IMG/VR virus record: IMGVR_UViG_3300032308_002246
Coordinates: 109,963 to 173,962 of that record
DNA from: a virus
Length of the DNA stretch: 64,000 nucleotides
Reading direction: 5' to 3' (one strand)
The notes under the pieces were generated by a model, which was given only the letters and a program-made list of their open reading frames with translations, was not told the origin of the DNA and searched no databases. This document shows positions 22,385 to 63,416 of the stretch, piece by piece. The stretch's first letter is position 1, and each line of letters begins with the position of its first letter. Position numbers and translations under genes: made by a program.

Positions 22385-22567
22385 ATGCCAATCGTCTTCC
22401 CACAATCGCCGTCAATAAATGACGAATTTTCTGTTGCAGGTAAATCTTGGAGCTGGAACGGGTTCCGTTGGCAAAGATTTAAATCTGCGATAATTGACGG
22501 CGGGTTTGCCAACATTGAAATAAATGTTTCAGACGACGAACTAATTGCTGACGGAGGCGATGCTTAA
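22385..22567 (+). CDS. Small fibre-associated protein
   Basis: 60 residues. FPQSPSINDEFSVAGKSWSW resembles the N-terminus of the fibre gene at 29775 (FPADAQSGDQHVSAGKTWTY), a short fold widespread at the ends of environmental phage fibres. TAA overlaps the ATG of the next, very long fibre gene by one base. It probably forms an attachment or cap piece of that fibre. Confidence 0.65.
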   Translation: MPIVFPQSPSINDEFSVAGKSWSWNGFRWQRFKSAIIDGGFANIEINVSDDELIADGGDA

Positions 22568-30557: not shown

Positions 30558-31592
30558 ATGGCAGTTTCAAGCAACAACCAAATCGATTCTGGAGGTAAAG
30601 CCCCTTCAGCGCCAACGATTGGTACCCCACTGCTTGCAACAGGAACTTCAGCAAGCGTAGTTTTCACCCCATCGACATATATTGGTAAAGGCACAGTAAC
30701 CTACAGAGCCGCTGCAGACTCCGGTCAAACTGCTACTGGTAATAGCAGCCCAATTGTTATCACTGGGTTGACGCAGGGTTCAACAAGAACATTTACTGTT
30801 ACGGCTGTTTCGTCAAACGGAGTTGAAACATCTTCCGAAGTAAGTGCCTCGCTGGTTATGGGAGTTGGTCCATCTGCACCAACAATCGGAACAGCAGTCA
30901 TAGTTCAGAACGTGGACAGAGCAATTGATGTTCCGTACACCGCAGGAGCAACTGGGACAAACCCAACAGTAACCTATACGGCAACATCAAGTCCTAGTGG
31001 ATTAACCGCTACCGGTGCAAGCCCAATACGCATAACTGGACTCACGGCAGGAACCGCATACACATTTACGGTTTCAGCTTCTACGGAATTTGGAACTGCA
31101 ACTTCCGCCGCTTCCAACTCGGTGACAGCTGGAAATAGACCTGGTGCTCCGACTATTGGTACCGCTACTGGCGGAAACGCTCAAGCGACTGTCACATACA
31201 CCGCAGGAGCTGCTGGGACGGGCGCTACGACATTTACGGCCATTTCATCTCCAGGGAACGTTCAGGCCTCTGGAGCGTCTCCTATCACCGTTACAGGCCT
31301 CACCAACGGCCAAGCATACACTTTCACTGTAAGAGCAACCAACTCCTATGGATTTCAGACCTCTGGGTCTTCAAACTCCGTAACACCAGTTGCCCCTCCG
31401 TACTTCCCACCGTTCTTTCCGCCGTTTTTCCCACCTTACTTTCCGCCGTTTTTCCCACCATTTTTCCCTCCGTATTTCCCACCATTCTTTCCTCCTTTCT
31501 TTCCTCCTTATTTCCCACCCTTCTTCCCGCCTTTCTTTCCACCATTCTTTCCGCCATTCTTCCCGCCGTACTTCCCTCCGAGGTTCAAGTAG
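30558..31592 (+). CDS. Triple fibronectin-III adhesin ending in a PPYF/PPFF repeat tail
   Basis: 344 residues. Three fibronectin type III-like domains lie at about 15-100, 105-190 and 195-278, each ending in an xITGLTxGxxxTFTVxA strand. From residue 280 the protein is only sixteen Pro-Pro-aromatic-Phe tetrapeptides (PPYF or PPFF), closing with PPRFK. No phage family with this tail is known to me. The tail would form a stiff polyproline-like rod with an aromatic face. Directly downstream starts the peroxidase/oxygenase cluster, so the prolines are plausible substrates of the P4H-like enzymes; this is inference. Confidence 0.75.
   Translation: MAVSSNNQIDSGGKAPSAPTIGTPLLATGTSASVVFTPSTYIGKGTVTYRAAADSGQTATGNSSPIVITGLTQGSTRTFTVTAVSSNGVETSSEVSASLVMGVGPSAPTIGTAVIVQNVDRAIDVPYTAGATGTNPTVTYTATSSPSGLTATGASPIRITGLTAGTAYTFTVSASTEFGTATSAASNSVTAGNRPGAPTIGTATGGNAQATVTYTAGAAGTGATTFTAISSPGNVQASGASPITVTGLTNGQAYTFTVRATNSYGFQTSGSSNSVTPVAPPYFPPFFPPFFPPYFPPFFPPFFPPYFPPFFPPFFPPYFPPFFPPFFPPFFPPFFPPYFPPRFK
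31395..31586 (+). repeat. Sixteen-unit 12-bp coding repeat (PP-Y/F-F)
   Basis: Sixteen tandem 12-base units encode PP[Y/F]F (the last is PPRF). Tyr units occur at positions 1, 4, 7, 10 and 15, giving a 36-base higher-order period (PPYF-PPFF-PPFF) over the first ten units. Codons vary (CCT, CCG, CCA; TTC, TTT), so the array is not a fresh slippage product. Confidence 0.9.
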
Positions 31593-41317: not shown

Positions 41318-41637
41318 ATCTTTTTTGTAAACATCTTTTCAGTTACAAATAAATGCTTTGCAAGAGTACTTGATGAGTGAATTATCCCAAGTGGATTTGG
41401 AACATTAAATTCGTTGAGGATGTCTGCCATCTTCCCGTTTGCAATGTCATCCCAAAAAGCCATCATTGCTTCCGCTCCAGTGCGGCCAGCTATGTAGTAT
41501 TTTTCTTCAATTTGACCCGGGAGAACATTGTCTGCCCAGTGGTTGTAACCATCTTTTTCTACCATGTTTGGCAGCTTGGCAAACTCCTGGACCATAATTT
41601 CTGTCCACCGATTGAATGCGTCGTTCTTTTCGCTCAT
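41314..41637 (-). CDS. Hypothetical protein on the minus strand within the oxygenase cluster
   Basis: 107 residues with ATG at 41637, just 18 bases from the divergent ATG at 41656. The sequence is helical (FNRWTEIMVQEFAKLPNM, GAEAMMAFWDDIANGKMADI) with no recognised family. A longer upstream frame would run into the oxygenase and is rejected. It is the only minus-strand gene between 20.9 and 43.2 kb, so it may be an insertion into the cluster or separately regulated. Confidence 0.68.
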   Translation of the reverse strand: MSEKNDAFNRWTEIMVQEFAKLPNMVEKDGYNHWADNVLPGQIEEKYYIAGRTGAEAMMAFWDDIANGKMADILNEFNVPNPLGIIHSSSTLAKHLFVTEKMFTKKI

Positions 41638-41655
41638 TCGGCTATCATACACCGT

Positions 41656-42528
41656 ATGAATCAAGAGCATAAGTTCAACGATGTAGAGCCACATCACCTC
41701 GGTGGTGGGGTTGTCGTTTTCCGTGGAGCTATTTCATTTGATAACAAATGGGCAAGCTCCTTTGCTGAGAAGCAGGTATCCAAAGAACGTTCTCAGATGT
41801 ACGACGAGGCGGTAGACCCAGAGACGGGGGAGCCCGCATTTATAAACAGGAGCGGGTATTACTTTGATGCTGAGGGAATGAACCAGATGCCTCGACGTGG
41901 TTCACAAATACACATGGATGCGGATGAAGAAGTTAGAGGTTTCTTGGATTTTATTGAGAAATCAAAAGACTCATATCTCCTGAAGTACTTTTACCTTTTC
42001 CCTCTGGCATACAAAAATGTTTGGTGGAAAGTAAAGGGGCATCTTGTCTCGTACTCCGTTGAAAACGGCGGAAAGTTTTTGGGCCCACACTCCGACACGA
42101 GTGCTGACTATGCTTACGGTTTCCCCCATCCGCACGACCAGCTAGCTACTAGAAACACAATCTCATGCATTGTTTATCTAAATGATGATTTTGAGGGCGG
42201 ACATCACTACTTCAATTATCTTGAAATTGACTATAAGCCTTCTGCTGGTGACATTTTGATGTTTCCATCAAACTACATGGCAGCTCATGAAGTAAAGGAA
42301 ACAACGGGTGGAAGTCGATACACATATCTTGGTTGGTATTCGCACGGCACGCCAAATAAAGAGGTCAATGAGCATATAGTTGACCCAGTTGAGTTTCCAG
42401 AAATGGCAAAAACTGCAACCAATGTTTATATGCCAACGCTTCGTTATGATTTTGCCGAATACCTTAACAAAGTTGACCCAGGCAAAACATCATTTGGGCA
42501 CAGTCTGGTAGAAAGTATGCACTCATGA
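41656..42528 (+). CDS. 2OG/Fe(II) oxygenase 9 (LGGG subfamily)
   Basis: 290 residues. ATG 41656 is chosen because the sequence from there (MNQEHKFNDVEPHHLGGGVV) aligns with oxygenase 8; the longer frame reads through the minus-strand gene. The ligands are His145-x-Asp147 (GPHSDTS) and His211 (AAHEVKET), with Arg221. The core is LNDDFEGGHHYF. The insertion YGFPHPHDQLATRN matches that of oxygenase 8. It overlaps oxygenase 10 by ATGA. Confidence 0.87.
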   Translation: MNQEHKFNDVEPHHLGGGVVVFRGAISFDNKWASSFAEKQVSKERSQMYDEAVDPETGEPAFINRSGYYFDAEGMNQMPRRGSQIHMDADEEVRGFLDFIEKSKDSYLLKYFYLFPLAYKNVWWKVKGHLVSYSVENGGKFLGPHSDTSADYAYGFPHPHDQLATRNTISCIVYLNDDFEGGHHYFNYLEIDYKPSAGDILMFPSNYMAAHEVKETTGGSRYTYLGWYSHGTPNKEVNEHIVDPVEFPEMAKTATNVYMPTLRYDFAEYLNKVDPGKTSFGHSLVESMHS

Positions 42529-43259
42529 TAGTAAAACATCTTGGGAATGGAATAATGCTTTTTGAAGATGTATTAGACACATCCCCCCTTGAGTCGTATC
42601 TTGAAAGAATTTTTGCAGAAAATTCAAGCGCTACAAACGGAGTCAATATTGACTCATCTCAAAATGACGGTGGATACACCGTACAGGAAGCTCATATTTC
42701 AGAATTACCAATTAGGTTTCACGGACTCTCCGGTAGTTCTGAATTTACAAAAGACGTCACAAAATCAATTGATGATGCGTTGTACAAGTGCTTAGTTGAG
42801 TACTGTCGAGTTTTCCCTTTAGCAATTGACTGTATAAAGTGGAGAACTAGCGGCCAGATTGCATCTTACTCGGTAGGGCAGAACATTGGCCCACATAGCG
42901 ACTGCGCGCTTCCGTATGATGCCGATGGCAATGTTTTAAACTCATTCCCTCTTCACAACACTCTTACTGGCTCAATGGTTTTAAGTGAAAATCACGAGGG
43001 TGGAGCAATAAAATTTAGACCCTGGGGGATAACTTCAAATCCAAAAATTGGCTCAGTTTTGATTTACCCATCATCTTTCATGGGTTGTCATGAAGTTGAG
43101 CAAGTAACTTCTGGTGTTAGAAATGTTTATCTGCAGTGGTTCTGTCAAGGAAAACCAGAGATGCAAATTTTAGAAAATAACAAATTGGACAATCTTGCAA
43201 CCGACGCAAAAAACTGCGGACAAGGCTATGTTCATGTTGGAATTATTCAACAGAATTAA
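42525..43259 (+). CDS. 2OG/Fe(II) oxygenase 10 (LGGG subfamily)
   Basis: 244 residues, beginning MIVKHLGNGIMLFEDVLDTS. The ligands are His124-x-Asp126 (GPHSDCA) and His189 (GCHEVEQV), with Arg199. The core strand is changed to SENHEGGAIKF. The end WFCQG corresponds to WFAQG and FFSQG in its relatives. It converges with oxygenase 11; the two stop codons share the bases TTAA. Confidence 0.86.
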   Translation: MIVKHLGNGIMLFEDVLDTSPLESYLERIFAENSSATNGVNIDSSQNDGGYTVQEAHISELPIRFHGLSGSSEFTKDVTKSIDDALYKCLVEYCRVFPLAIDCIKWRTSGQIASYSVGQNIGPHSDCALPYDADGNVLNSFPLHNTLTGSMVLSENHEGGAIKFRPWGITSNPKIGSVLIYPSSFMGCHEVEQVTSGVRNVYLQWFCQGKPEMQILENNKLDNLATDAKNCGQGYVHVGIIQQN

Positions 43260-44326
43260 TACAAACTGTTGTGTTCTTTGCCGCGTTGCTCGTTATCGTA
43301 TACCACCTGAGAATGTGAGTAGGCTTTCTTTAGACCGTTTTCACCCTCAAGTGTTCTATTTTGGTAAACAGGGTTTGCCTTAAACATCCCGTTTGCGTCT
43401 TTTGCCGCATCGCCATTTCCCATGAATTCAGTTTTTAGGCAGTAATACTTGTAGTCATCGTACAGGTTGTCTATGAAGTGTGGTCTACACCATCCATCGT
43501 TGTCTTCAGGTTCAGAAATGTTGATTCCTACGTCGTCATGACTGCTTCCTTGACTAAAGAATTCAAGGTACCCATACCGGACACCCTTCTTTACTGGTTC
43601 AACACCGTGGGTGGCCATAAAGTTTGCTGGGAAAATAACCACATCACCAGTCTTTGGGACATTCTTTATTCCCAAGTAAGGGAATACAAGCTCTCCTCCG
43701 GTGTAGTTTTCTCCGTTTAGCTCTGATTCGTCTTCTACGCAGTCATTGAGATAGAGCATTACTGCTAGCACTTGGCGCATTTGTATTTGTCCGCGTGGAA
43801 CAAAACGCTCGCCGTTTGTTGCTCTGTAATTTGAGTCGTTGTCGTTGTGTATTCCAAGGAAAGCACCCTCGTCGTATCTCATGGCGTGACCCTTTGTGCG
43901 CCACCATATTGTTCCCAAAACCATAGGGAATTCATCAACATATCTAAGAAGACACTTGTAAATCATGTCTTCCCAGTACCTGAATACCTCAATCATTTCT
44001 GGTTTTGTTTCAGAGTTGACCACTTCAAGAAGTCTTACTGGGACCATCTGGACTTGTTCTGGCGAAAACTTATTACCGTCTTCATTAATGGCGTATAGAT
44101 TTCCCTCTTCGTCATGGTCCCATGTCCAGCGCTGTTCATGAGCTGATTTTGAATGTTCGTCAATGTACGGAAGAAGCGTACTTCTATCAATGTTTACTAC
44201 GCCGGGGAACCTGAGTACGCCGCCACCGAGGTCTTCGTATGGCATGTTAAAGATTTCAGAGACAGCTTCGTTGTTACGGACATCAGGTGTGGTTCCGTAA
44301 AATCTGTTGTCTTTTATCTTTTCCAT
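43256..44326 (-). CDS. 2OG/Fe(II) oxygenase 11 (LGGG subfamily)
   Basis: 356 residues. ATG 44326 lies two bases after the upstream stop; an earlier TTG at 44341 is rejected. The LGGGVLRF motif, His160-x-Asp162 (GIHNDND), His240 (ATHGVEPV) and Arg250 define the enzyme. A loop near FVPRGQIQMRQVLAV parallels the ATRN insert of oxygenases 8 and 9. A C-terminal extension of about 100 residues, with a Tyr/Lys-rich end, is unique. It is the longest of the twelve. Confidence 0.86.
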   Translation of the reverse strand: MEKIKDNRFYGTTPDVRNNEAVSEIFNMPYEDLGGGVLRFPGVVNIDRSTLLPYIDEHSKSAHEQRWTWDHDEEGNLYAINEDGNKFSPEQVQMVPVRLLEVVNSETKPEMIEVFRYWEDMIYKCLLRYVDEFPMVLGTIWWRTKGHAMRYDEGAFLGIHNDNDSNYRATNGERFVPRGQIQMRQVLAVMLYLNDCVEDESELNGENYTGGELVFPYLGIKNVPKTGDVVIFPANFMATHGVEPVKKGVRYGYLEFFSQGSSHDDVGINISEPEDNDGWCRPHFIDNLYDDYKYYCLKTEFMGNGDAAKDANGMFKANPVYQNRTLEGENGLKKAYSHSQVVYDNEQRGKEHNSLY

Positions 44327-44328
44327 AG

Positions 44329-44946
44329 CTACTCTCGCCAAAATTGAATCAAACTGAATCTAGCACCTGCAGTCACTTCCGTAATTCCATGGTAGTTCAA
44401 GTCAGCGTTGAATATAAGTGCTTCTCCAGCTTTGAGTTTGATGTCTATGTCAATATTGGGGTTCTCCATCGTCCCCGTCAAATAGAACTGCGTGTGGCCG
44501 CCTTCGTAATCGTCGTTTAAGCATATAGCCGACGAGTAGAGAATCCTGCCCATGCCGTAATCGCCATCTCCACCGTCCGTATGAACCTTGTGGGATTGAC
44601 CAGTAGTTTGGCTTTTAATCGTGAAGCCTGGGTTTGGGAAAAACGGAACATCCAAGTTTATTCCTGTTTTAAGCATGTACTCGCTGGTTAGTCTTCTGTA
44701 TACCGCAGAGAGTATTGAAGCAAGCTTAAAGCCCCCAACGCTCGAAGAATTGCTCATTAAGTAGGTGGGAAAAATGTTGCGCTCATCACTGGAAGGACTT
44801 TTATATTCCAGCGAGTTTACAGAACTCATAATTTTTGATAAGAGTCGACCACTTATTAGTTGTCCTAGGTAAATTCCAGAACCATTTGGGCCTATTTCTT
44901 TCAACATTTCTACATTATCCGTCTTTACCACTTTCCAAGCGGGCAT
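44329..44946 (-). CDS. 2OG/Fe(II) oxygenase 12
   Basis: 205 residues if started at ATG 44946, which overlaps the end of the zinc-ribbon gene by 22 bases. The ligands are His122-x-Asp124 (KVHTDGGDG) and His186 (NYHGITEV), with Arg196. The core is LNDDYEGGHTQFY. An N-terminal helical domain of about 100 residues precedes the core. The overlap with the zinc ribbon indicates coupled expression, repeating the zinc-ribbon/oxygenase neighbourhood at 21.5 kb. Confidence 0.85.
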   Translation of the reverse strand: MPAWKVVKTDNVEMLKEIGPNGSGIYLGQLISGRLLSKIMSSVNSLEYKSPSSDERNIFPTYLMSNSSSVGGFKLASILSAVYRRLTSEYMLKTGINLDVPFFPNPGFTIKSQTTGQSHKVHTDGGDGDYGMGRILYSSAICLNDDYEGGHTQFYLTGTMENPNIDIDIKLKAGEALIFNADLNYHGITEVTAGARFSLIQFWRE

Positions 44947-45152
44947 GTAGCGGCCTGAAGTTTTACTTTCAGTTTCATAAAACAACCACACTCTTTACAT
45001 TGCTTTGTTAAAGCCAACAAGCTTGGGCATGACTCGCAAATAGAATATCTACTAGAAGAAACTTCATCTGAAACGTGCTTTGCATTTGGATTCACTGCAT
45101 CCCAAGGGCGTGTTGTACCAAGTTTTTTCTTGTACTCCTGCCATGGCGTCAT
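44925..45152 (-). CDS. Small zinc-ribbon protein, copy 2
   Basis: 75 residues. It is close to copy 1: WQEYKKKLGTTRPWDAVNPN, CESCPSLLALTKQC, KECGCFMKLKVKLQAATCPL. Five to six Cys form a probable zinc ribbon. The start is ATG 45152. It lies between a small VHTS-type gene and oxygenase 12 on the minus strand. Its conserved coupling to oxygenases suggests a partner or maturation role, not proven. Confidence 0.77.
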   Translation of the reverse strand: MTPWQEYKKKLGTTRPWDAVNPNAKHVSDEVSSSRYSICESCPSLLALTKQCKECGCFMKLKVKLQAATCPLGKW

Positions 45153-45969: not shown

Positions 45970-46917
45970 CTATAGCGGCTGATAGTCGAAATCGTCAACA
46001 GTCGAGGCCTGGGTCCCATTTGTAACCGGGTAAAGCGTTATTCCGTATGCTTTTGCTTTTGCCGCCGTTGCGAGACTTACATCGTGGGTTGTCGCTGCAT
46101 CACCGTTTAGAACTGATTGAATTCGCACGGTCTCTGAAGATGGTGTATCTGTACTCACTTGAACATAATCGAAGTATCTAGAAGAGCTTGTAGTGTCTGC
46201 TTTGCTTGTGCTATTTACAACCGTAACAGTTCCGCCACTTGATTTAATTGTTCTAATCCAATATCTGTAGTATGTAGTTGTTCCGGAAACAGTGTAAGAG
46301 TATGAACCAACACCTACCTGCGTATTATTTTCACATTGACAGGCAAGGCCATTGTTAACAAAATAACACCCACCACCGCATACATTTGCACATCCACCTC
46401 CAGTGGATTGACCATTACATGATGGGTCAGGTCCACATGAGCCGCATGGGCTGGAGCATGGCTGATAAAAAGCGCACGGTCCACTTCCCCCAGTACATGC
46501 ATTGTTTGAGCATGTGCAAGTTGGGTATCCTGAACAAACCGAATAACCACCAGGGCAACCATTGCAGGCATATTCAGTATAGCTATATGGGACTCCATAT
46601 GTGTCTCTATCAGTTACCGCGGCATACCAATTATTTGAGTTTTCAACCCAAAATGCAGCACCCCAGCCAAATTGGCCTGTTGTTCCGTATCCTATGCGCG
46701 TTCTTGCATACGTAACACCAGTTTTAATGGAGGCCAAAGGATATGAAGACGCTGCAGTAGCTGTTGATGCCCTGTTGCTTGATACACCCCATGTGCCTCG
46801 AGTATTTTGCCAAGACTTTGTGCCTGTCCCTACAAGCGTACTTCCGCTGTCTGTTCTATTGAAATTATCAATAAAAGCTTTTAATTTTGTAACAATAGAT
46901 ACAATTCCAGGAATCAT
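45970..46917 (-). CDS. Adhesin-like virion protein with a cysteine-rich insertion
   Basis: 315 residues starting at ATG 46917 in an ATGA overlap with the fibre gene. The framework (FIDNFNRTDSGSTLVGTGTK, FGWGAAFWVENSNNWYAAVT and DYVQVSTDTP) is a lectin-like beta-sandwich found in phage tail proteins and secreted actinobacterial proteins. Between about 125 and 205 an insertion carries about twenty Cys in pairs and CxC/CxxC spacings, with Gly and Asn. It may be disulfide-rich or metal-binding. The insertion resembles no family I know. Confidence 0.7.
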   Translation of the reverse strand: MIPGIVSIVTKLKAFIDNFNRTDSGSTLVGTGTKSWQNTRGTWGVSSNRASTATAASSYPLASIKTGVTYARTRIGYGTTGQFGWGAAFWVENSNNWYAAVTDRDTYGVPYSYTEYACNGCPGGYSVCSGYPTCTCSNNACTGGSGPCAFYQPCSSPCGSCGPDPSCNGQSTGGGCANVCGGGCYFVNNGLACQCENNTQVGVGSYSYTVSGTTTYYRYWIRTIKSSGGTVTVVNSTSKADTTSSSRYFDYVQVSTDTPSSETVRIQSVLNGDAATTHDVSLATAAKAKAYGITLYPVTNGTQASTVDDFDYQPL

Positions 46918-48107
46918 GTTGTAAGGTTCCCTACCGCCACCCATGTATTTGTTGCTCGCTTAATCAATGTAGCACAAGCCCATTGACCCTGAAGTTTTAG
47001 ACCAGAATCATAAGCATTTATGGTTACGCCACTTCCCTGCAGTGTTACCAAATATGTGCCGGTTGTTTGAAGAACATCGACTCTGTCGCCAATAGCAAAG
47101 TTGGCGTCATTTGCCGATGTTATTGTGACAGTAACATTTGCTGATGTCGGGCCAACTTCAATAAGTTTTCCGAGGTCGGCAACAAGTATGTTGTAATTAT
47201 TCGATGTTAGAGTTACCGCTGTTCCAGCACCAGTTGACCTAAAACCAGCGCGCGCCGCTCCAGCAGCAAGGTCTGTTGTGGAAACAGAGTTTGCTAAGTT
47301 TAATTTTGAATACGAAATTGATGCTGACGCACTAATATCGGAATCAACAATAACACTGGCTGAAATCGCTGTAACACCAGTGTCTGAAATTGTTACATCT
47401 CCAGACTCCGCAACGGCAGTCGGAACGCCAGAAGAGTTGTAGACAATAATGTTTCCAGCAGTGCTTGTTGCCAATTTTGACAAAGCAATAGACGCAGATG
47501 CGCTTATGTCTTCGTTGACAATAGTTCCATTTACTATATTTGCTGATGCAATAGTTATTGCGGTTGGGAGTGCCCCTGTAGCAAGTTTTGACAAATCAAT
47601 AGACGCAGAAGCATTTATATCAGCATTGACAATTGTTCCGTCAAGAATTTTATCACTTGTAACTGAACCAGTTGCAAGTTTTGCTTCTGTTATAGCGCCG
47701 TCTTCAACTTCAGCTGTTTGAACTTCTCCTGAACCACCGGTTATGACCCAATCATCGCTTGTTCTTTTAATTAAGGTTACTCTTGTCCATTGAGATGAGA
47801 TTGTCGTTAGACCGCCCTCGGCTGCAACTGTTACGCCTGGTGCACCAGCAATACTCAATGAACCTGTAGAAACGAGAAGAACATCAACCCTGTCTCCAAT
47901 TTCAAAAGTAACAGCGGCGTTGGTCGGTATTGTCAGAGTAATTGACCCAGAGTTTGAGAACTCCAAAAGCTTTCCTCTGTCGGTAGCTACAAGTGTGTAG
48001 CTTGTTCCAGTCTGGACATTTTTTGTAAAATTAAAATCGCTTGCCTGGAGCGTATTCATCTGTGAGGCCGTTAGTGTCTGGCCAGCTGCAAACGTCTGAA
48101 TTGTCAT
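46914..48107 (-). CDS. Tail fibre protein 3, with two copies of the tip domain
   Basis: 397 residues. The N-terminus MTIQTFAAGQTLTASQMNTL is a common fibre start. A tip domain (YTLVATDRGKLLEF ... TLIKRTSDDWVITG) lies at about 35-125, and a second copy (YNILVADLGKLIEVG ... TLIKRATNTWVAVG) ends the protein. Between them are repeated phrases such as VNADINASASIDLSKLATG, as in the fibre at 29775. GAGGAAA precedes the ATG. Being on the other strand from the other fibres, it may be separately timed or invertible. Confidence 0.78.
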   Translation of the reverse strand: MTIQTFAAGQTLTASQMNTLQASDFNFTKNVQTGTSYTLVATDRGKLLEFSNSGSITLTIPTNAAVTFEIGDRVDVLLVSTGSLSIAGAPGVTVAAEGGLTTISSQWTRVTLIKRTSDDWVITGGSGEVQTAEVEDGAITEAKLATGSVTSDKILDGTIVNADINASASIDLSKLATGALPTAITIASANIVNGTIVNEDISASASIALSKLATSTAGNIIVYNSSGVPTAVAESGDVTISDTGVTAISASVIVDSDISASASISYSKLNLANSVSTTDLAAGAARAGFRSTGAGTAVTLTSNNYNILVADLGKLIEVGPTSANVTVTITSANDANFAIGDRVDVLQTTGTYLVTLQGSGVTINAYDSGLKLQGQWACATLIKRATNTWVAVGNLTT

Positions 48108-48313: not shown

Positions 48314-51300
48314 ATGTTTGGTCAGCGACGACGCATAAACAAGCCCGCAGCCATCATGGCTGTTCCATCTGTATTTTTTTTGCTTATTGGAATTTTTGGT
48401 TTTTCTGCCCCGGTGCAAGCAACATTTACCACAAATACACAAATATCCAATGGACAAGCATTCCTTCAGGGAGAATTTGCTGAAGTAGGCGTACGAGCGA
48501 ACGGCGCATTTGGCTCAACAAGTGTTCCTTCTGGCTTTCATGCCAACCCACCAAACTGTCTTGGTTTCCGTGTTGACCGTGAAATGGACGGATGGGGAGC
48601 CACAACAGACGACGGCGACTACTTCTGTCCAGGCTCACCGTTTGAGGGCTGGCAAATGAAGGTTGCTGGGAGTATTGGCAAAAACGACCACGGTCAAACA
48701 GGTATTGCAGGTGCAGTTTCTGACATCCAAGACTCTGGCTCATCTCAGTGCGTTTCTTGGAACAGCGCAAGCCCATACAACGGTGTGAGCGTCTCGCAAA
48801 GATACTGCGTGCCTACAGCAGGGCAAGCACTTCATACGGATGTGACTCTCACCAACACGACTGGCTCTGCAATAGAAAATGTTTTTTTCGGTCGAGGCTT
48901 TGACCCAGACAACGCAACTGGTTCTGGCGCTATGACTTGTGCTGGTGGAACTGTTAGTACATCAATGTTCCAGTCCTGCAACGGCGTAACTGGCCAGGGA
49001 ACGGAAGCACAGGCTACAGCAAGGTGGGGAAATAACGCATTTATTGCACTTCAATCATTTGATGCTCGTGCTCGTGTTGCCCGACAAGCTGGTGGATTTT
49101 CTTCCCCAGACCCTGCTGATATTTGGAACGCTGGAAACACACTTGCAACTAGCGGAACATACCTCGGCAATGTTGGTGAAATGTATGCAGACGCTGGAAT
49201 ATACGTTGCCTTGAATGTGCCAACACTTGGTGCTGGCTCTTCAACATCGTTCCGCATTAGCTATGTGCTTTCAGCAGATGGGAACAATGCTCCAGTTCTT
49301 GGCTCACCGGTTGTGAGTGGCATTGGCCAGACATCTGCAACTGTTGCCTCAACAGTCAACCCAAAGGGTTTTTCTACTACAGCAGAATTGGTCTACTCAA
49401 CTGACCCAGATTTTGGAACTTCTAGCACAGTGTCAATGGGAACTTTTAGTGGCTCAGATGAAGTAGCTATTAATGCAGAGATTACTGGTCTTGACCCAAG
49501 CGAAATCTACTATGCAAAGATTGTTGCAACCAACGAGACTGGTGAAACAGAATCTGCAGTATTTGAATTTGAGACCCTTGCGGCTACTGCCCCAATAGTC
49601 TCTTCCGAAGAGCCAACGGTAACTGTTGATGACGGCCCTGTAACCCTATCTGGAACCTTGAACCCCAATGGATTTAGTTCTACAGCTGTATTTCAATACA
49701 GCACGACGGCTGACTTCTCTGGAACTGTCGTTGACATTCCGGTCTCTGGAACTTTTACTGGGACATCTCTTTCAACTGTATCGACTGTAGTTTCTGGTTT
49801 GACTAGCTCGACCACTTATTACTTCAGACTAAAAGTAACCAATGCTTCAGGTTCGGCGTATGGTTCAACTATTTCTTTTGTTCCTGCCGACATCCCTGCA
49901 CCAACATCGTTGGTTGTGACAAGACTTGAAGATACGACTGCTAATGGGACTCTGCGTTGGGCAATAACGCAAGCAAACGCTACTGCTGGAGGTATATACG
50001 ACTCAATCACATTTAGTATTGATGGGACAATATCTCTTGCTAGTGCACTACCACAGATAACTCAAAATGTGACAATTACCGGCAACGGAAGAACGCAAAC
50101 CATCATTGATGGAAACAACCTGTACCGCATATTTAATGTTCCATCTGGCAGAAGCCTAACCGTATCCGATATGACTCTTAAACAAGGACAAAATGTTTAC
50201 GGTGGACTTATATATAATTCCCAAGGAACGGTTGTTGCAACAAATATCAGATTTACAGCAATGACTGGTGGTAGCGCTGTTTGGAATAATGCTGCTGGCT
50301 CAACAGCAACATACACCAACTCAACATTTGACTACCTGAGCATCGGTATTGGTGGAGACCACGGCTCAACCCCACAGCTTCCGGCTGGAGTTACAACTTG
50401 GGCAGACCAAACAGATTCTGCTTTCCAAAACAAAACATATGTAAATAATTGCGTATTTAGCAATAACGGTTCTGGTATAAACACCCAGCGCTTTACAAAA
50501 GTGCAAAACTCAACATTTACAAATAACTCTTATGGAGCAAACATTCAAGGCTTGAATCGTGGTCAGGTTTTAAATTCAACATTTACAAACAATGGAATCG
50601 GCGTTTATCATAACGGTTGGATACCAACTACATTCAATATGGGAACCGACAACCGACTAATTAGTGGAAATACTTTTACAACAAACGGAATAGCCATTTA
50701 TCTTGACGACACATACAACAATGGTCAAAAGAACCAAAGTTGGTCAACAGTAATTGGCAACTCGTGGGATGCTTCAGGTGTATGGATTCGTCACTATCAA
50801 TGGAATGGAACTACCCAAGTTGAAGGGACTGCTCGTCCATATACAACTGGAACAGTGTTTACACAAAGCTCCAATGCTTTCCCTGACACAATTGGCGCCC
50901 CATCAAACCTAACGGCAACTGATACTGGTTCTGGAATCCTCCTTGACTGGGATGCGCCTACATCTGGTGGATACTTGCCTGAACGCTATGCCGTTAGTTG
51001 GTCAGGAAGTCTTGGCGGTGGTGGAATAGCAACAGGAAACGTTGGTGGCGCAAATGCCTTGAATACATCTATCGAAATCCCGTACTCAACCATATATTCA
51101 TTTGGTGAACAAGGAGAAACATTCCCGTTCTACATTCGTTCCGATAACGACACATTCTCAAAGTATTCAGCTAATTCAAATACTGTGTCAATCCAGGTTG
51201 GTGTTTCTTCAAGCACTACGACTACTAGTAGTTCAGTTCCTACAAGTAGTTTAGTTCCTACAAGTAGTTCGTTGCCAGTGGCACCAGAAGAATCGACAAC

Positions 51301-52558
51301 GACCACAGAGCCAGAGGTAGTTGTCGTCCCTGTATCGCCTGAGCCAGGCACCACAGTCCCAGAAGACACCACCCCAGAAACAGAAGAGACGCTGCCTGAA
51401 GAAACAGAAACAACAGAGACACTGCCAGATACGACAGATGAAACAGTGCCATCAGAAACAGAAACGGAAACAGAATCAGGTCCATCTGAAGAGTCTACCC
51501 CTGAATCAGAGGAGGTTGCAATTGTTATTGACAGCCTTCCAGATGATGCAACACCAGAAGAAATCGCAGAAGCAGTATTTGAGGCCATAGATGGGGCCAC
51601 AGCAGAAGAAATCGGTGCAGTTCTTGAGTCCGTATTTGAGGAAGCAACATCTGACGAGGTGGTTGCAATTCTTTCTACTGTATTTGAAGATGCTTCGTCT
51701 GCAGAAATCGTATCAATACTCTCCGAAACATTTGTCGATGGTGCCACTGACGAAGAAGTAGCAGCCGTTACTGAAGCACTTCTATCTGATGGAATAACTG
51801 AAGAAGCTGTATCAACGCTTATTGATGTTCTCGAGAGTGGAGTGATTGATGAATCACAGGTTGAGGCTGTTGTTGAAGCAATTCTCGCAGAGGAAATAAG
51901 CGAAGAAGTAGCCACCGAACTTGCGACAAGCGCTGCTGTTATTCAGAACATTACGGCAGAACAAGCAACTGACATCTTCCAATCAGTTCCGGTTGGGGAA
52001 CTGTCTGCAGAAGATGGTTCAGCAATCGTTGATGCAGTTCAAGACGCCCCCACCGAGGTTAAGGAATCGTTCGAAGAGGAAATCAACATCTTCACTGGAG
52101 TGTTTGACGACTATGTCCCACTTGATTCAACGATAGATGTTGGAACAAGAAGAAGCGTTATTGCTGTAAACTTGGTAACCAGCACTGTGGCTTTGGCTTC
52201 AGCTGCGGGTGGATTGCCAACCCCATCTTCATCAACCTCAACCCCTAAGCAAGACCTGGCTGCTCGTAAGCCGGAGGACGAAGAGACTGAAGAAGGTGGA
52301 GCAATCGAAGGCGAAGGCCCAGATTGGATAAAACGGATATCTATTTACAAATACGAAGATGGAGTAAGAGTTATGGACTGGAAAAACTTTGCAAGAAAGT
52401 TTGTTTACGGAATTATGGCATCTGGATTTACACTTGCTGGCGCGACGGTCATGTACTTCACGCTGTCTGGTTTGACCCAACAAATTGCCCTTTGGGGAAC
52501 ACTTCTTGCTTTCACTGGCTCAATGTATCTGCATATGAAAGAACCAGATAGCGAGTAG
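48314..52558 (+). CDS. Large exported, membrane-anchored surface protein
   Basis: 1414 residues. An N-terminal Sec signal (basic start, then VPSVFFLLIGIFGFSAPVQA) leads to a beta-rich domain with several Cys. Two fibronectin-III-like domains (about 325-530) and a right-handed beta-helix (about 545-850; LRWAITQANAT, ITITGNGRTQTIIDGN-type rungs) follow, then a further fibronectin-III domain. Next come a Ser/Thr/Glu linker (about 960-1070), five or six acidic helical repeats (TxEEIxxVLESVFEEA-type), and a C-terminal membrane pair (about 1360-1405). This layout is that of a host-envelope protein, not a virion part. It may alter the host surface or exclude other phages. Confidence 0.72.
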   Translation: MFGQRRRINKPAAIMAVPSVFFLLIGIFGFSAPVQATFTTNTQISNGQAFLQGEFAEVGVRANGAFGSTSVPSGFHANPPNCLGFRVDREMDGWGATTDDGDYFCPGSPFEGWQMKVAGSIGKNDHGQTGIAGAVSDIQDSGSSQCVSWNSASPYNGVSVSQRYCVPTAGQALHTDVTLTNTTGSAIENVFFGRGFDPDNATGSGAMTCAGGTVSTSMFQSCNGVTGQGTEAQATARWGNNAFIALQSFDARARVARQAGGFSSPDPADIWNAGNTLATSGTYLGNVGEMYADAGIYVALNVPTLGAGSSTSFRISYVLSADGNNAPVLGSPVVSGIGQTSATVASTVNPKGFSTTAELVYSTDPDFGTSSTVSMGTFSGSDEVAINAEITGLDPSEIYYAKIVATNETGETESAVFEFETLAATAPIVSSEEPTVTVDDGPVTLSGTLNPNGFSSTAVFQYSTTADFSGTVVDIPVSGTFTGTSLSTVSTVVSGLTSSTTYYFRLKVTNASGSAYGSTISFVPADIPAPTSLVVTRLEDTTANGTLRWAITQANATAGGIYDSITFSIDGTISLASALPQITQNVTITGNGRTQTIIDGNNLYRIFNVPSGRSLTVSDMTLKQGQNVYGGLIYNSQGTVVATNIRFTAMTGGSAVWNNAAGSTATYTNSTFDYLSIGIGGDHGSTPQLPAGVTTWADQTDSAFQNKTYVNNCVFSNNGSGINTQRFTKVQNSTFTNNSYGANIQGLNRGQVLNSTFTNNGIGVYHNGWIPTTFNMGTDNRLISGNTFTTNGIAIYLDDTYNNGQKNQSWSTVIGNSWDASGVWIRHYQWNGTTQVEGTARPYTTGTVFTQSSNAFPDTIGAPSNLTATDTGSGILLDWDAPTSGGYLPERYAVSWSGSLGGGGIATGNVGGANALNTSIEIPYSTIYSFGEQGETFPFYIRSDNDTFSKYSANSNTVSIQVGVSSSTTTTSSSVPTSSLVPTSSSLPVAPEESTTTTEPEVVVVPVSPEPGTTVPEDTTPETEETLPEETETTETLPDTTDETVPSETETETESGPSEESTPESEEVAIVIDSLPDDATPEEIAEAVFEAIDGATAEEIGAVLESVFEEATSDEVVAILSTVFEDASSAEIVSILSETFVDGATDEEVAAVTEALLSDGITEEAVSTLIDVLESGVIDESQVEAVVEAILAEEISEEVATELATSAAVIQNITAEQATDIFQSVPVGELSAEDGSAIVDAVQDAPTEVKESFEEEINIFTGVFDDYVPLDSTIDVGTRRSVIAVNLVTSTVALASAAGGLPTPSSSTSTPKQDLAARKPEDEETEEGGAIEGEGPDWIKRISIYKYEDGVRVMDWKNFARKFVYGIMASGFTLAGATVMYFTLSGLTQQIALWGTLLAFTGSMYLHMKEPDSE

Positions 52559-52653: not shown

Positions 52654-53418
52654 ATGAGTAAATTAGCTTGGGACTATATCGTTCCGGTCGTTCTTCCAAA
52701 AGACCTTAAGGGCATTGAGCCGGGCAAACTTCCAGCAAACCTTTTGCGGGCTGTTCCAGGTGGCGGGAAGATGCATTGGATTGCCGCGTCTGCGTGGACG
52801 GCAATGGTTGAAAAAGCAAAAGCCGCAGGAATTGAACTAAAACCCACGTCAAGCGGTGACACATATCGAGATTACGAAAGCCAAAAAAGAGGCTTCCTCA
52901 CCAGATACCAACTTGAACCAGTGGCTGGGACTAGCACCAAAACATTTGAGGGCAAAACTTGGTACCTCAAGAAAGGTATGGCTATGTTGGCCACGCCTGG
53001 TAAGTCGCAGCACAACCTTGGGTTGGCTGTCGATGTTCATTCAGCTTCAGAACCAAAACGTCTTAACTGGTTGATTGCAAATGTAAAAGAATTTGGTTTC
53101 TCGTGGGAAGTTGTTCCTTCTGAACCATGGCATCTTCGATATGTAAATGGCGATAATGTTCCAGCATCTGTGAAAGCATGGATGGATGCAAACGGGGTTG
53201 TTGCTCCAGCAGCAGGAGCACCCGTAACAGCAGCAGGAGCTCGTGGAGAGCACACGGCACTCCAGGAAGCTCTAAAGGCTAAAGGTTTCTATAAGGGCAA
53301 TATAGATGGAGCTATGTCCCCAGCTTTGCAAGAAGCCGTCAAAGCTTTCAAGGTTGCAAACAAGCTTGCAGCTGACTCAGTCGTAGGTCCAAAAGTAAAA
53401 GAATTGCTTGGACTGTAA
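52654..53418 (+). CDS. Endolysin: M15 (VanY-type) peptidase with peptidoglycan-binding domain
   Basis: 254 residues. The zinc ligands are His120 and Asp127 in KSQHNLGLAVDVH, and His160 in EPWHLRYV with catalytic Glu157, the M15B D-Ala-D-Ala carboxypeptidase/endopeptidase signature. After an Ala/Pro linker (about 183-197) residues 200-254 form a peptidoglycan-binding_1 repeat (LQEALKAKGFYKGNIDGAMS). It cleaves cell-wall peptides at the end of infection. ATG 52654 is preferred to TTG 52648. There is no signal peptide, so export depends on a holin, several candidates for which follow. Confidence 0.92.
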   Translation: MSKLAWDYIVPVVLPKDLKGIEPGKLPANLLRAVPGGGKMHWIAASAWTAMVEKAKAAGIELKPTSSGDTYRDYESQKRGFLTRYQLEPVAGTSTKTFEGKTWYLKKGMAMLATPGKSQHNLGLAVDVHSASEPKRLNWLIANVKEFGFSWEVVPSEPWHLRYVNGDNVPASVKAWMDANGVVAPAAGAPVTAAGARGEHTALQEALKAKGFYKGNIDGAMSPALQEAVKAFKVANKLAADSVVGPKVKELLGL

Positions 53419-53672: not shown

Positions 53673-53905
53673 TGGCAAGCGGAAAACCAGCTAAAAGAAA
53701 TGTATCTAATACAACTGTTTCAGCACCAAAAATTGATGACGGAATAAATGTTCTTTATGTTGGAGCTGGTAAGTCTGTATTTCATAAATGCCCAGAATGC
53801 TCTAGGTCTACCGGTAAGGGGATTGTAAGAGAGTATAAAAATGAGCTTTACTGCTCACGTAGTTGCGTTATGTCGCATAAGTCAAAAGTGGAAGTTCCAG
53901 TATGA
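53672..53905 (+). CDS. Small zinc-finger-like protein
   Basis: 77 residues with two Cys pairs, CPECSRS and CSRSC, flanked by His (FHKC, MSHKSK). This suggests one structural zinc. It overlaps its upstream neighbour by a base and the next by ATGA. No known family. Its presence within the lysis cassette is unexplained. Confidence 0.65.
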   Translation: MASGKPAKRNVSNTTVSAPKIDDGINVLYVGAGKSVFHKCPECSRSTGKGIVREYKNELYCSRSCVMSHKSKVEVPV

Positions 53906-54174
53906 AGAAAGATTTGTTAGTAAATGTATTACTTAGAATTCTTGCTACTTTTGCTGCATCCGGTTTGGGAGTTATCGGTGCAGGAACTATTGCTGGTGTT
54001 CCAGTACTCAAAGCTGTCTTCATGGCTGGAATTGCAGGGGTTGCGGTAGTAATCGAAGGCCTCTCTAGGGCATTCCTAGAGGATGGGAAGCTTTCAAGTT
54101 CTGAAATAAACGATGTCTTTAACAAGGTTGACAAGAAAGCGCCAGCAAAGGCGAAGGCGAATGAAACGGCTTAG
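53902..54174 (+). CDS. Putative holin, two membrane helices
   Basis: 90 residues. It has a short basic N-terminus, two hydrophobic segments (LLRILATFAASGLGVIGAG and VLKAVFMAGIAGVAVVIEG), and a charged Lys/Ala-rich end (KKAPAKAKANETA). This is the classic small holin layout. It lies in the lysis cassette after the endolysin, and would form membrane lesions that release the endolysin, timed with other membrane proteins here. Confidence 0.72.
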   Translation: MKKDLLVNVLLRILATFAASGLGVIGAGTIAGVPVLKAVFMAGIAGVAVVIEGLSRAFLEDGKLSSSEINDVFNKVDKKAPAKAKANETA

Positions 54175-54668: not shown

Positions 54669-55196
54669 ATGAAAATAGAAAATTTAAGAATTGGAGATAA
54701 AGGTCCTGCAGGTGGAATAATTTTTATCAATCCCACCACACATGGGAATAAGACTGGTTTGTGGTTTGAGGCAGGTCCATGCAGAAACCCAGATTTTGTT
54801 CAAATTCCATGGGCATCCCAATATGGAGATTCTGGTGCTTCTGGAACGACTATTGGCACAGGCAAAAGTAATACAAAACTCATCGCAGCCATGAGCGGAA
54901 ATACAAAAGATAACTGCGCAGCCTCGTATTGCGTTAATTATTCGTGGAACGGATTTTCAGATTGGTTTTTGCCATCAGACAACGAGATGGACCATTTGTT
55001 TGCTCATCGAGACATAGTTGGTGGCTTTGATGATGGCAACTCCTACTGGAGCTCAACGCAGGGTGTTCCAGGCGTGGACTTTACATACGAAAGCGCACAT
55101 GTGCAGATTTTTAGCGCAATTGGGTCTGGTGGATACAATGTAAGCAAGGACAGATTGTACTTTGTCCGCCCAGTTCGCTCTTTTGACAACGAATAA
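54669..55196 (+). CDS. DUF1566-like protein
   Basis: 175 residues. GDKGPAGGIIFINPTTHG begins the family often found in surface proteins of environmental actinobacteria. NGFSDWFLPSDNEMDHLF and SYWSSTQG match the DUF1566 W-x-LP-x-xxE-xxxL pattern and its later Y-W-S-S motif. It has no signal peptide or membrane helix. It may be a virion or lysis-associated binding domain. It overlaps the ferredoxin by one base. Confidence 0.72.
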   Translation: MKIENLRIGDKGPAGGIIFINPTTHGNKTGLWFEAGPCRNPDFVQIPWASQYGDSGASGTTIGTGKSNTKLIAAMSGNTKDNCAASYCVNYSWNGFSDWFLPSDNEMDHLFAHRDIVGGFDDGNSYWSSTQGVPGVDFTYESAHVQIFSAIGSGGYNVSKDRLYFVRPVRSFDNE

Positions 55197-55441
55197 TGAG
55201 AGTATGGATTGACCAGGACTTATGCACTGGAGATGGTCTTTGCGCGGAGATAGCCCCAGATGTTTTTCATATGATGCCGGACGGTCTTGCGTATGTAAAA
55301 GAAGGGGACAAGATTTATGCGGCCGCTGTGGGGAACCCAGAAGGCGCAGCTGGATTGGCTTCTTTCGCAGACGACAGGCTGGCTGATGTAATTGATGCAG
55401 CCGAAGAATGCCCCGGCGAATGCATCTTTATTGAGCCTTAA
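55196..55441 (+). CDS. Small ferredoxin, 3Fe-4S/4Fe-4S single-cluster type
   Basis: 81 residues. WIDQDLCTGDGLCAEIAPDV gives Cys-x5-Cys, and ECPGECIFIE gives the C-terminal Cys-Pro. This is the pattern of small ferredoxins that supply electrons to cytochromes P450 in actinobacteria (cysteines at three or four positions, Pro after the last). No P450 or reductase gene is in this window. Possible roles are reduction of Fe(II)-enzymes or host metabolism. It converges with a minus-strand gene through a shared TTAA. Confidence 0.85.
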   Translation: MRVWIDQDLCTGDGLCAEIAPDVFHMMPDGLAYVKEGDKIYAAAVGNPEGAAGLASFADDRLADVIDAAEECPGECIFIEP

Positions 55442-60799: not shown

Positions 60800-61084
60800 A
60801 TGACAGTGTTAGGTGACAGGTTAGCAAAGCTTTCTACATCAAACAAGCACATACCTTGTCCGATGGCAAAGCTTCTAAAAAGTTTGGATACAGATACGGC
60901 TGTTGCTCTTATTGATGTCATGTCAAAAGAAGAGATACCAACACGCACAATCCACCAAGAGCTTCACAATGCCGGCATCCCGATAGCCAGGGAATCAATC
61001 CAGGTGTTCAGGAAGAACAATTGCGCATGTGCAAATGAAGATAAGTGCAACATCAATGAAATAACCAATGGGGGAACAAAGTGA
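60800..61084 (+). CDS. Small hypothetical protein, possible regulator
   Basis: 94 residues. ATG 60800 follows GGGGAG. It contains CPMAKLLKSLDTDTAVALID and EEIPTRTIHQELHNAGIPIA, a helical layout resembling a DNA-binding HTH. It ends in a Cys-rich segment (CACANEDKC). It overlaps the phosphoesterase gene by GTGA, so the two are co-translated. Confidence 0.58.
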   Translation: MTVLGDRLAKLSTSNKHIPCPMAKLLKSLDTDTAVALIDVMSKEEIPTRTIHQELHNAGIPIARESIQVFRKNNCACANEDKCNINEITNGGTK

Positions 61085-62298
61085 CTAAACCAAACAACAA
61101 AATCGCAACTGGTGTTAACAAGATAAAACAAGACCACCAGAAAAAAGAATCAAGCAAGAAGATGCTTAACGCAATCGAGCAGATGATATCTAAGAAGGGA
61201 ATTGACTTTGACAGTATCGGAAGCATAGACAGAATCTCTTTGTACCAGACTGTCACCAAGGACGAAGAGGGCAACACGGAGATTCACGACCTCCAAGCTG
61301 TTCAGCTTTCTCCAACATGGGACAGCGGTCCACAGTGGAAACTCCCAGAACCAGGGCCTCTGTTACAAATACAAAAGTCAACAGTTGCTCCGAAGAAGAA
61401 CACAAGCCTAAAAATGGCACTGATAGTTCCTGATATCCAGTTCGGTTATTACCGTGATAGAGACTTGAACTTAGTGCCTACTCATGACGAGCGTGCTATC
61501 GCTATTGTTCTTGCTGTTGCAAAGCGATACCAACCAGACCAAATAATTTGCCTGGGAGACAATCTTGACTTGCCAGAAATGAGCAAGTACAGACTGAGCC
61601 CGGCTTTTGCAAACACAACGCAGGCATCAATTGATAGAGCGACAACATTCTGCGCAGAGATGCGAGAAGCTGCTCCTCACGCAAAGATAGTTTGGCTTGC
61701 CGGCAACCACGAAGAGCGTTTGACGAATTACTTGCTTGATAATGCAAAGGCGGCATTCGGAATCAACCGTGGCAATACTCCTGAGGGCTGGCCAGACCTT
61801 TCTGTTCCAAACCTCTTGCGTATGGATGAGTATGGCGTGCAATATCTCGATGGGTACCCAACTGGTTACTACCTCATCAATGACCAGCTTGCATGTATAC
61901 ACGGAGACAAGGTTCGCTCTAACGGGTCAACTGCTCACATGTATCTAAACGCAGAGAAGCTTTCAGTTATCTACGGCCACATCCATAGAAACGAAATGGC
62001 TTACAAAACACGACGCGACCACGACGGCCCTAGAACAATCATGGCCGCATCGCCTGGAACACTCGCACGAGTTGACGGAGCGGTGCCATCCACAAAGGGT
62101 GGGATAGACGTCTATGGACGACCAAAGACAGTCGTAGAGAATTGGCAACAAGGGTTCGCTCTTGTCCACTTCCAATCAACTGGCAAGCAGTTCTTCAACT
62201 ACGAGCCGGCGATGATATACGACGGTTGGTGCATCTTCCGTGGAGAAGAGTTTGACGGCAGAAAGTCAAAAGCTCCTACCCTGAAGCCGGTTAAATAA
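61081..62298 (+). CDS. Calcineurin-like metallophosphoesterase
   Basis: 405 residues. The conserved blocks are VPDIQFG (Asp118; Gln120 replaces the usual His), LGDNLD (159-163), AGNHEER (GNHE 208-211), IHGD (His274), and YGHIHRN (His300, His302), binding two metal ions. The N-terminal 110 residues are helical and basic, perhaps for DNA binding. Phage members are often tied to DNA metabolism. The enzyme is likely a phosphodiesterase or nuclease; the substrate is not known. The D-x-Q variant occurs in several phage enzymes. Confidence 0.85.
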   Translation: MTKPNNKIATGVNKIKQDHQKKESSKKMLNAIEQMISKKGIDFDSIGSIDRISLYQTVTKDEEGNTEIHDLQAVQLSPTWDSGPQWKLPEPGPLLQIQKSTVAPKKNTSLKMALIVPDIQFGYYRDRDLNLVPTHDERAIAIVLAVAKRYQPDQIICLGDNLDLPEMSKYRLSPAFANTTQASIDRATTFCAEMREAAPHAKIVWLAGNHEERLTNYLLDNAKAAFGINRGNTPEGWPDLSVPNLLRMDEYGVQYLDGYPTGYYLINDQLACIHGDKVRSNGSTAHMYLNAEKLSVIYGHIHRNEMAYKTRRDHDGPRTIMAASPGTLARVDGAVPSTKGGIDVYGRPKTVVENWQQGFALVHFQSTGKQFFNYEPAMIYDGWCIFRGEEFDGRKSKAPTLKPVK

Positions 62299-63029: not shown

Positions 63030-63416
63030 ATGAGCGAAATTGAATCAGAAAATGTATCTATAGAGACTAAAGAGGAAAGAGACTCTAAGAATAAAAGTGT
63101 AAGAAGAAATTTACAAGACATAGCTAGTGGTATTGCTATACAAAGATACGACTGGATGGACCTAGCAAGATGCAAGGGACGTACAGAAGACATGTTTCCC
63201 AAAGGGCATAAGGACATTAGCTACATTCAGGGGGCTAGAGAGATGTGCTCGTACTGCACCGTTCGACCACAGTGCCTGGAGTATGCACTAGAGTTTCCAC
63301 CTGCTGACATGCACGGGGTATGGGCAGGGATGACATCAAGACAGTTAGCGGCCGAACAACGAAGGAGAGGAATCACACCGACTAAGCCAACGCTTAGCCA
63401 GATGTGGAACGACTAA
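63030..63416 (+). CDS. whiB: WhiB-family transcriptional regulator
   Basis: 128 residues. Cys48, Cys73, Cys76 and Cys82 (RCKG..MCSYCTVRPQC) form the WhiB [4Fe-4S] site. GVWAG (96-100) is the characteristic turn, followed by a basic DNA-binding helix region (RQLAAEQRRRG). WhiB proteins are almost exclusive to actinobacteria and their phages, where they can modify host gene expression. This is the strongest host marker here. It is followed by a one-base stop/start overlap. Confidence 0.93.
   Translation: MSEIESENVSIETKEERDSKNKSVRRNLQDIASGIAIQRYDWMDLARCKGRTEDMFPKGHKDISYIQGAREMCSYCTVRPQCLEYALEFPPADMHGVWAGMTSRQLAAEQRRRGITPTKPTLSQMWND

What the first reader, a model, noticed from the sequence alone, without database searches (positions are those of the whole stretch)
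48314..52558. Phage-encoded giant host-envelope protein
Sec signal, beta-helix, fibronectin domains, Ser/Thr linker, acidic helical repeats and C-terminal membrane anchor make a typical secreted, anchored surface protein, not a virion component. It is the second-longest or longest accessory gene here. It may change the host surface, block other phages, or alter grazing and attachment of infected cells.
Basis: partly seen in the sequence, partly recalled or inferred. Interest (0 to 1): 0.72.

Follow-up and report, generated by a model that had tools for sequence, protein, structure and literature searches.

The report
Phage lectin displayed on infected cells
A large virus of freshwater actinobacteria encodes a giant secreted, membrane-anchored protein whose relatives swap different sugar-binding heads on one conserved anchor next to the cell-bursting genes, which suggests that viruses re-decorate the surface of the cells they infect; the same head domain occurs in phages of other bacterial groups with other export tails.

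Summary
The ORF at 48314-52558 (1,414 aa) is real and under strong purifying selection (dN/dS about 0.04-0.12 in its globular parts). It reads: Sec signal, 294-aa cysteine-containing head ("cap", predicted supersandwich fold of carbohydrate-active enzymes), two Fn3-like domains, beta-helix, Fn3, Ser/Thr-acidic linker, acidic helical stalk, C-terminal membrane anchor. The virus (174 kb, four WhiB genes) infects Actinobacteria. (1) Signal and anchor are conserved in a large family of actinophages, while ectodomains are exchanged; non-cap heads include L-type, C-type and SUEL lectins and PA14 domains. (2) The gene sits at the head of the lysis cassette: VanY endolysin within 300 bp downstream in 37 of 61 distinct loci and within 4.5 kb in 51. 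(3) The same cap occurs in unrelated phages on other export tails: a T9SS sorting domain in a 642-kb megaphage, and autotransporter-like barrels inside curli cassettes of T4-like phages. Best explanation: a phage-encoded, membrane-anchored lectin displayed late on the infected cell. The leading purpose is masking receptors against re-adsorption and superinfection; adhesion or sibling capture is the main rival. Display is well supported by sequence; sugar binding and purpose are inferred. No experiment exists.

The parts
48314..48421 (+). Sec signal peptide (residues 1-36), conserved in family members with unrelated heads
48422..49303 (+). N-terminal cap domain (residues 37-330), 6 Cys; predicted beta-supersandwich, similar to N-domains of GH94 phosphorylases and galactose-mutarotase-like folds
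49304..49894 (+). two Fn3-like domains (331-527)
   Evidence: weak Pfam matches; sequence pattern
49895..50881 (+). right-handed beta-helix-like domain (528-856)
   Evidence: sequence motif; weak PDB matches; exchanged as a module
50882..51193 (+). third Fn3 domain (857-960)
   Evidence: PF00041; shared with DSL-LC01
51194..51553 (+). Ser/Thr-rich, acidic linker (961-1080), least constrained part (dN/dS 0.32-0.79)
51554..52093 (+). acidic helical repeat stalk (1081-1260)
52094..52558 (+). conserved C-terminal anchor: VGxRR motif, hydrophobic helix, Gly/Ser-acidic linker, KKF...FTLAG...TLSG helical hairpin
52654..53418 (+). VanY-type endolysin with peptidoglycan-binding domain: first gene of the adjacent lysis cassette
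   Evidence: PF02557 5.2e-16, PF01471 2.8e-10; synteny
53902..54174 (+). holin-like gene of the lysis cassette
   Evidence: phrog_443 1e-06; synteny

Best explanation
The protein is a phage-encoded lectin-type display protein. The host Sec system exports it. The C-terminal helices hold it in the cytoplasmic membrane, the acidic helical stalk and Ser/Thr linker carry it through the peptidoglycan, and the cap/Fn3/beta-helix head stands outside and binds glycan. It is made late, with or just before the lysis genes it heads. Most likely purpose: the head occupies or covers cell-surface glycans that tailed phages use, so infected cells and their debris no longer adsorb released progeny or rival phages. 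Shown from sequence: signal, anchor, modular head exchange, lectin relatives, lysis synteny, the same cap on other export tails. Inferred: surface location, late expression (from synteny), sugar binding of the cap, and receptor masking.
For: Signal and anchor conserved while ectodomains are swapped: N-terminal heads fall into 8 clusters among 43 distinct full-length ORFs. Among 44 non-cap ectodomains Pfam finds SUEL lectin in 4, PA14 in 4, C-type lectin in 3, L-type lectin in 2 (L-type 1e-40). Of 61 distinct loci with at least 3 kb downstream, 37 have VanY within 300 bp and 51 within 4.5 kb. The cap is found with a T9SS sorting domain in megaphage LR756502 (CHU_C 7.2e-17, TIGR04131 1e-13) and with C-terminal barrels in 8 contigs (Autotransporter 2.7e-19 in L163), all 8 carrying CsgF and 7 also CsgG. 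Cap homology is reciprocal by HMM. Four WhiB genes point to an actinobacterial host. Phage HTVC008M gp018 carries a signal, curlin-like repeats and a domain 34% identical to the PA14 region of L092.
Against: No expression, localisation or binding data. The cap model is weak (pLDDT 52, pTM 0.63), and the fold match (Z 8.3) shows no function. The anchor helices are only moderately hydrophobic. The cap is also fused to an S8 protease without a recognisable signal in the structural block of a T4-like phage (L164), and lectin domains are common on tail fibres. Only one variant (L005/L014) shares a stretch with a predicted tail protein, so competition for the same receptor is thinly supported. Masking receptors only around lysis would protect for a short time.
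Confidence: 0.6

Rival explanations
1. Adhesin for capture: the displayed lectin binds glycans of neighbouring uninfected siblings or of particles, so that infected cells aggregate and released phage finds new hosts nearby ('sibling capture', as proposed for the curli genes of pelagimyophages).
For: All eight cap-barrel contigs found have curli genes beside the cap gene, and sibling capture was proposed for phage curli genes (PMC7029224). Lectin heads on long stalks are typical of adhesins.
Against: Melnitz infections showed no clumping (PMC9004378). Display just before lysis gives little time for capture.
Confidence: 0.28
2. Lysis-associated envelope factor: the anchored protein helps to time or complete lysis by acting on the wall or envelope, without a role in recognition.
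For: Position at the head of the VanY/holin cassette. In cyanophage DSL-LC03 an autotransporter barrel also follows two endolysins. A lysis role was proposed for the phage curli pore (PMC9004378).
Against: No catalytic wall domain was found. Exchange of lectin heads is not expected of a lysis factor.
Confidence: 0.12
3. Virion component such as a fibre or head decoration.
For: Tail-fibre-like genes lie just upstream on the opposite strand. Lectins are common on fibres. The cap sits on an S8 protease in a structural block in L164. L005/L014 share a stretch with a tail protein.
Against: Sec-like signal in all 46 ORFs analysed; conserved C-terminal anchor; no tail or head family match except a weak scaffold hit to the acidic stalk; not in the structural operon; cap relatives carry secretion tails.
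Confidence: 0.08
4. Display of the lectin to change grazing or attachment of infected cells.
For: Follows from surface display.
Against: No data; benefit to a lytic phage at lysis is unclear.
Confidence: 0.04

Closest known systems
Phage curli (CsgG/CsgF/curlin) cassettes of pelagimyophages and Melnitz (PMC7029224, PMC9004378)
   Same: Phage-encoded surface-export cassette; relatives in other T4-like phages carry the same cap domain inside it
   Different: Here an actinobacterial host, one giant protein, no CsgG pore, membrane anchor in place of outer-membrane export
Surface superinfection-exclusion and receptor-masking proteins (for example T5 Llp, phi80 Cor; from memory)
   Same: Proposed effect: block adsorption from the infected cell's own envelope
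   Different: Those are small lipoproteins; this is 1,414 aa with interchangeable lectin heads; the effect is untested here
Bacterial T9SS type B and autotransporter surface adhesins
   Same: Same cap linked to these export tails in other phages
   Different: The window protein has neither; it uses its own anchor
Actinomycetia phage DSL-LC01 protein WJZ48438 ('hypothetical protein')
   Same: Signal, Fn3, acidic region and anchor align
   Different: Other N-terminal heads; different phage family, GC 53.6%
Host-surface modification in jumbo phages (PMC7824862)
   Same: Concept that phages alter the host surface against rivals
   Different: There by glycan-modifying enzymes; lectins are discussed as virion parts, not as anchored host-surface proteins

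Membership tests
Fibronectin type III proteins | PF00041 match over cut-off | tested here: met
   26.3 bits against cut-off 25, residues 862-898; only the third copy, and marginal
Sortase-anchored surface proteins | LPXTG motif before a C-terminal hydrophobic segment and positive tail | tested here: not met
   no LPXTG in the sequence; C-terminus MYLHMKEPDSE
Autotransporters (T5SS) | C-terminal beta-barrel | tested here: not met
   no match in the window protein; met only in the cap relative L163
T9SS cargo | CHU_C/TIGR04131 sorting domain | tested here: not met
   absent from the window protein; present in the megaphage relative
Known lectin families | Pfam lectin domain in the protein itself | tested here: not met
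   none in P0001; found in other proteins bearing the same anchor
Galactose-mutarotase-like/supersandwich fold (cap) | fold match covering the domain | tested here: inconclusive
   Foldseek 5.9e-06, VIA Z 8.3, rmsd 4.7 over 177 residues, on a low-confidence model
Virion structural protein | match to tail or head families, or place in the structural operon | tested here: not met
   only phrog_1018 scaffold at 0.0022 over the acidic part; lysis-cassette position
Virion structural protein | presence in virions | not testable with these tools
   needs proteomics
Superinfection-exclusion proteins | blocks adsorption or entry of phages | not testable with these tools
   needs expression and adsorption tests
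Anchored actinophage display family (this report) | signal plus VGxRR...KKF...TLSG anchor | tested here: met

The most novel reading that the evidence does not exclude
Lectin display on infected cells is a general strategy: phages of Actinobacteria, Bacteroidetes and Proteobacteria draw on a shared pool of sugar-binding heads and mount them on whatever export and anchoring route suits their host (own membrane anchor, T9SS, autotransporter or curli), and turn the dying cell's surface into a phage-controlled adhesive or masked surface.
Probability: 0.45. Interest if true: 0.85.

Novelty: new variant of a known kind. Interest (0 to 1): 0.72.

Why it matters
Freshwater actinobacteria are among the most abundant lake bacteria and their large phages are barely studied. 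If right, a whole family of phages installs exchangeable lectins on infected cells just before lysis. That would add a protein-based way of changing host surfaces, beside the known glycan-modifying enzymes and the unexplained phage curli genes, and gives one testable explanation that could cover both. The natural head-swaps on a constant anchor allow the function to be read from head specificity.

Tried and rejected
Virion protein: no structural family match apart from a weak scaffold hit to the acidic stalk. Sortase substrate: no LPXTG. Cellular origin of the anchor: the pattern scan of 84,980 species genomes gave one hit, a contig in a gammaproteobacterial MAG that carries the same VanY, holin-like and phosphoesterase genes as the phages, hence probably phage DNA binned with it. 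The patterns were strict, and actinobacterial genomes could not be searched by profile, so a diverged host source is not excluded. No plasmid match for cap or anchor. The stalk has no significant PDB fold match. No PDB sequence relative for the cap. Promoter and terminator scans were at chance level. Literature searches for phage-encoded anchored lectins, T9SS or autotransporter display found no prior description in the held library, which lacks most subscription journals. The first family search, with a collagen model, only served to identify the record.

Full report
Observation. The ORF 48314-52558 encodes 1,414 aa from an ATG preceded by GGAGG. It lies in a 173,962-base virus record (window = bases 109,963-173,962) with four WhiB genes, an actinobacterial hallmark. 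It has 45 relatives found by a first viral scan, and dN/dS of 0.04-0.12 in cap, beta-helix, stalk and anchor in nearly all comparisons, close to the neighbouring endolysin. Exceptions are the stalk (0.24) and first Fn3 pair (0.17) against L010. The linker is relaxed (0.32-0.79).

Anatomy. Signal 1-36; cap 37-330 with six cysteines; Fn3-like 331-527; beta-helix 528-856; Fn3 857-960; Ser/Thr-acidic linker; acidic stalk; anchor from about 1261. AlphaFold gives a confident series of short helices for the stalk (pLDDT about 85-92), a disordered linker and three C-terminal helices at pLDDT about 65-70. The anchor keeps VGxRR, KKF, FTLAG-like and TLSG motifs across the family. The membrane topology is inference.

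One chassis, many heads. Two anchor scans matched 243 and 133 stretches of viral contigs (overlapping sets, so the numbers must not be added). In 43 distinct full-length proteins the N-terminal heads form 8 clusters, 16 proteins having the cap. Pfam recognises sugar-binding heads in proteins with the same anchor: L-type lectin (1e-40), SUEL lectin (1.8e-8), C-type lectin (6.5e-5), PA14 (1.3e-8); over 44 distinct non-cap ectodomains SUEL 4, PA14 4, C-type 3, L-type 2. Most of the other heads have no Pfam match. Between the window and L001 synonymous divergence is 1.36 in the cap, 0.29 in the beta-helix and 1.66 in the stalk; with L005 it is 0.45, 1.83 and 1.68. Such jumps within one gene are the mark of recombination of modules.

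Place. Of 69 distinct anchor ORFs, 61 have at least 3 kb downstream. A VanY endolysin on the same strand follows within 300 bp in 37, within 1.5 kb in 42 and within 4.5 kb in 51. Upstream lie fibre genes on the other strand. The gene therefore stands between host-recognition and lysis genes, and late expression is likely but not shown.

The same head on other tails. A tblastn search found the cap in the 642-kb megaphage LR756502. That protein ends in a type IX secretion sorting domain (PF13585 7.2e-17; TIGR04131 1e-13), as used by Bacteroidetes; the host of that phage is not recorded. A scan with the cap alignment found divergent relatives. Eight contigs encode signal, cap, Thr-rich linker and what looks like a C-terminal barrel ending in Phe (one of the eight, L165, is cut off before its end); one is recognised as Autotransporter (2.7e-19), while the others tested had no Pfam barrel match. 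All eight carry CsgF beside the cap gene and seven CsgG, the eighth being cut off. A neighbour gene, an adenylate/guanylate cyclase, matches Pelagibacter phage HTVC008M and Methylophilales phage Melnitz, whose curli cassettes are known but unexplained. Cap homology is reciprocal: the actinophage HMM finds the megaphage at 6e-17 and the barrel group at 1e-7 to 2e-5; the barrel-group HMM finds actinophage caps at 5e-9 to 5e-5 and the window protein itself at only 0.002. In HTVC008M, gp018 combines a signal, a domain 34% identical to the PA14 region of the actinophage protein L092, and curlin-like repeats. An exception is L164, where the cap is fused to a subtilisin-like protease in a structural block.

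Fold of the cap. The model is of low confidence (pLDDT 52, pTM 0.63). It matches N-terminal supersandwich domains of GH94 and related phosphorylases and, lower down, galactose mutarotases (Foldseek 5.9e-6; VIA Z 8.3, rmsd 4.7 over 177 residues). This agrees with a carbohydrate-related fold but does not show binding.

Interpretation. The protein is best read as a lectin-type display protein anchored in the membrane of the infected cell. The purpose most consistent with heads, stalk and late position is masking of surface glycans against re-adsorption of progeny and against superinfection. Adhesion or sibling capture is the chief rival, and the two are not exclusive. In one variant (L005/L014) the ectodomain shares 50-110 residues with a predicted tail protein (window 30558-31592 and relatives), a first hint that head and tail may address the same receptor.

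Novelty and limits. Phage changes of host surfaces are known, and phage curli cassettes are published. A family of anchored, head-swapping lectins linked to lysis genes, and one head shared across three export routes, was not found in the held literature. That library is incomplete. Cellular actinobacterial genomes could not be searched by profile, so a host origin of anchor or cap stays open.

Noticed in passing
L173:6679-8001 (Pelagibacter phage HTVC008M gp018, YP_007517884): Annotated hypothetical, but has a signal peptide, a PA14-like domain and curlin-like repeats: possibly a fibre subunit with a sugar-binding tip in the phage curli cassette.
   Followed up: partly
L164:4849-7236: Cap domain fused to a subtilisin-like S8 protease beside tail sheath, terminase and portal genes of a T4-like phage.
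   Followed up: partly
L014/L005 giant protein, residues about 845-955; window 30558-31592: Ectodomain stretch shared with a predicted tail protein of related phages.
   Followed up: partly
L175:1600-4792 (cyanophage DSL-LC03): An autotransporter barrel protein lies directly after two endolysin genes, again a surface protein beside lysis genes.
   Followed up: no
window 41377-44991: Cluster with several 2OG-Fe(II) oxygenase-like genes on both strands.
   Followed up: no
window 22567-26694: 1,375-aa fibre-like protein with a major tropism determinant N-terminal domain (Mtd_N, 1.7e-11).
   Followed up: no
window 45970-46944: 324-aa protein with a very Cys/Gly-rich middle and no family match.
   Followed up: no
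window 55196-55441 and 61081-62298: Ferredoxin-like gene and a metallophosphoesterase gene that recur downstream of the giant gene in many related phages.
   Followed up: partly
window 63153-63344: One of four WhiB-family genes of this virus.
   Followed up: partly
L046 (JAURLY010000091.1): Contig in a gammaproteobacterial MAG that looks like actinophage DNA, probably misbinned.
   Followed up: partly
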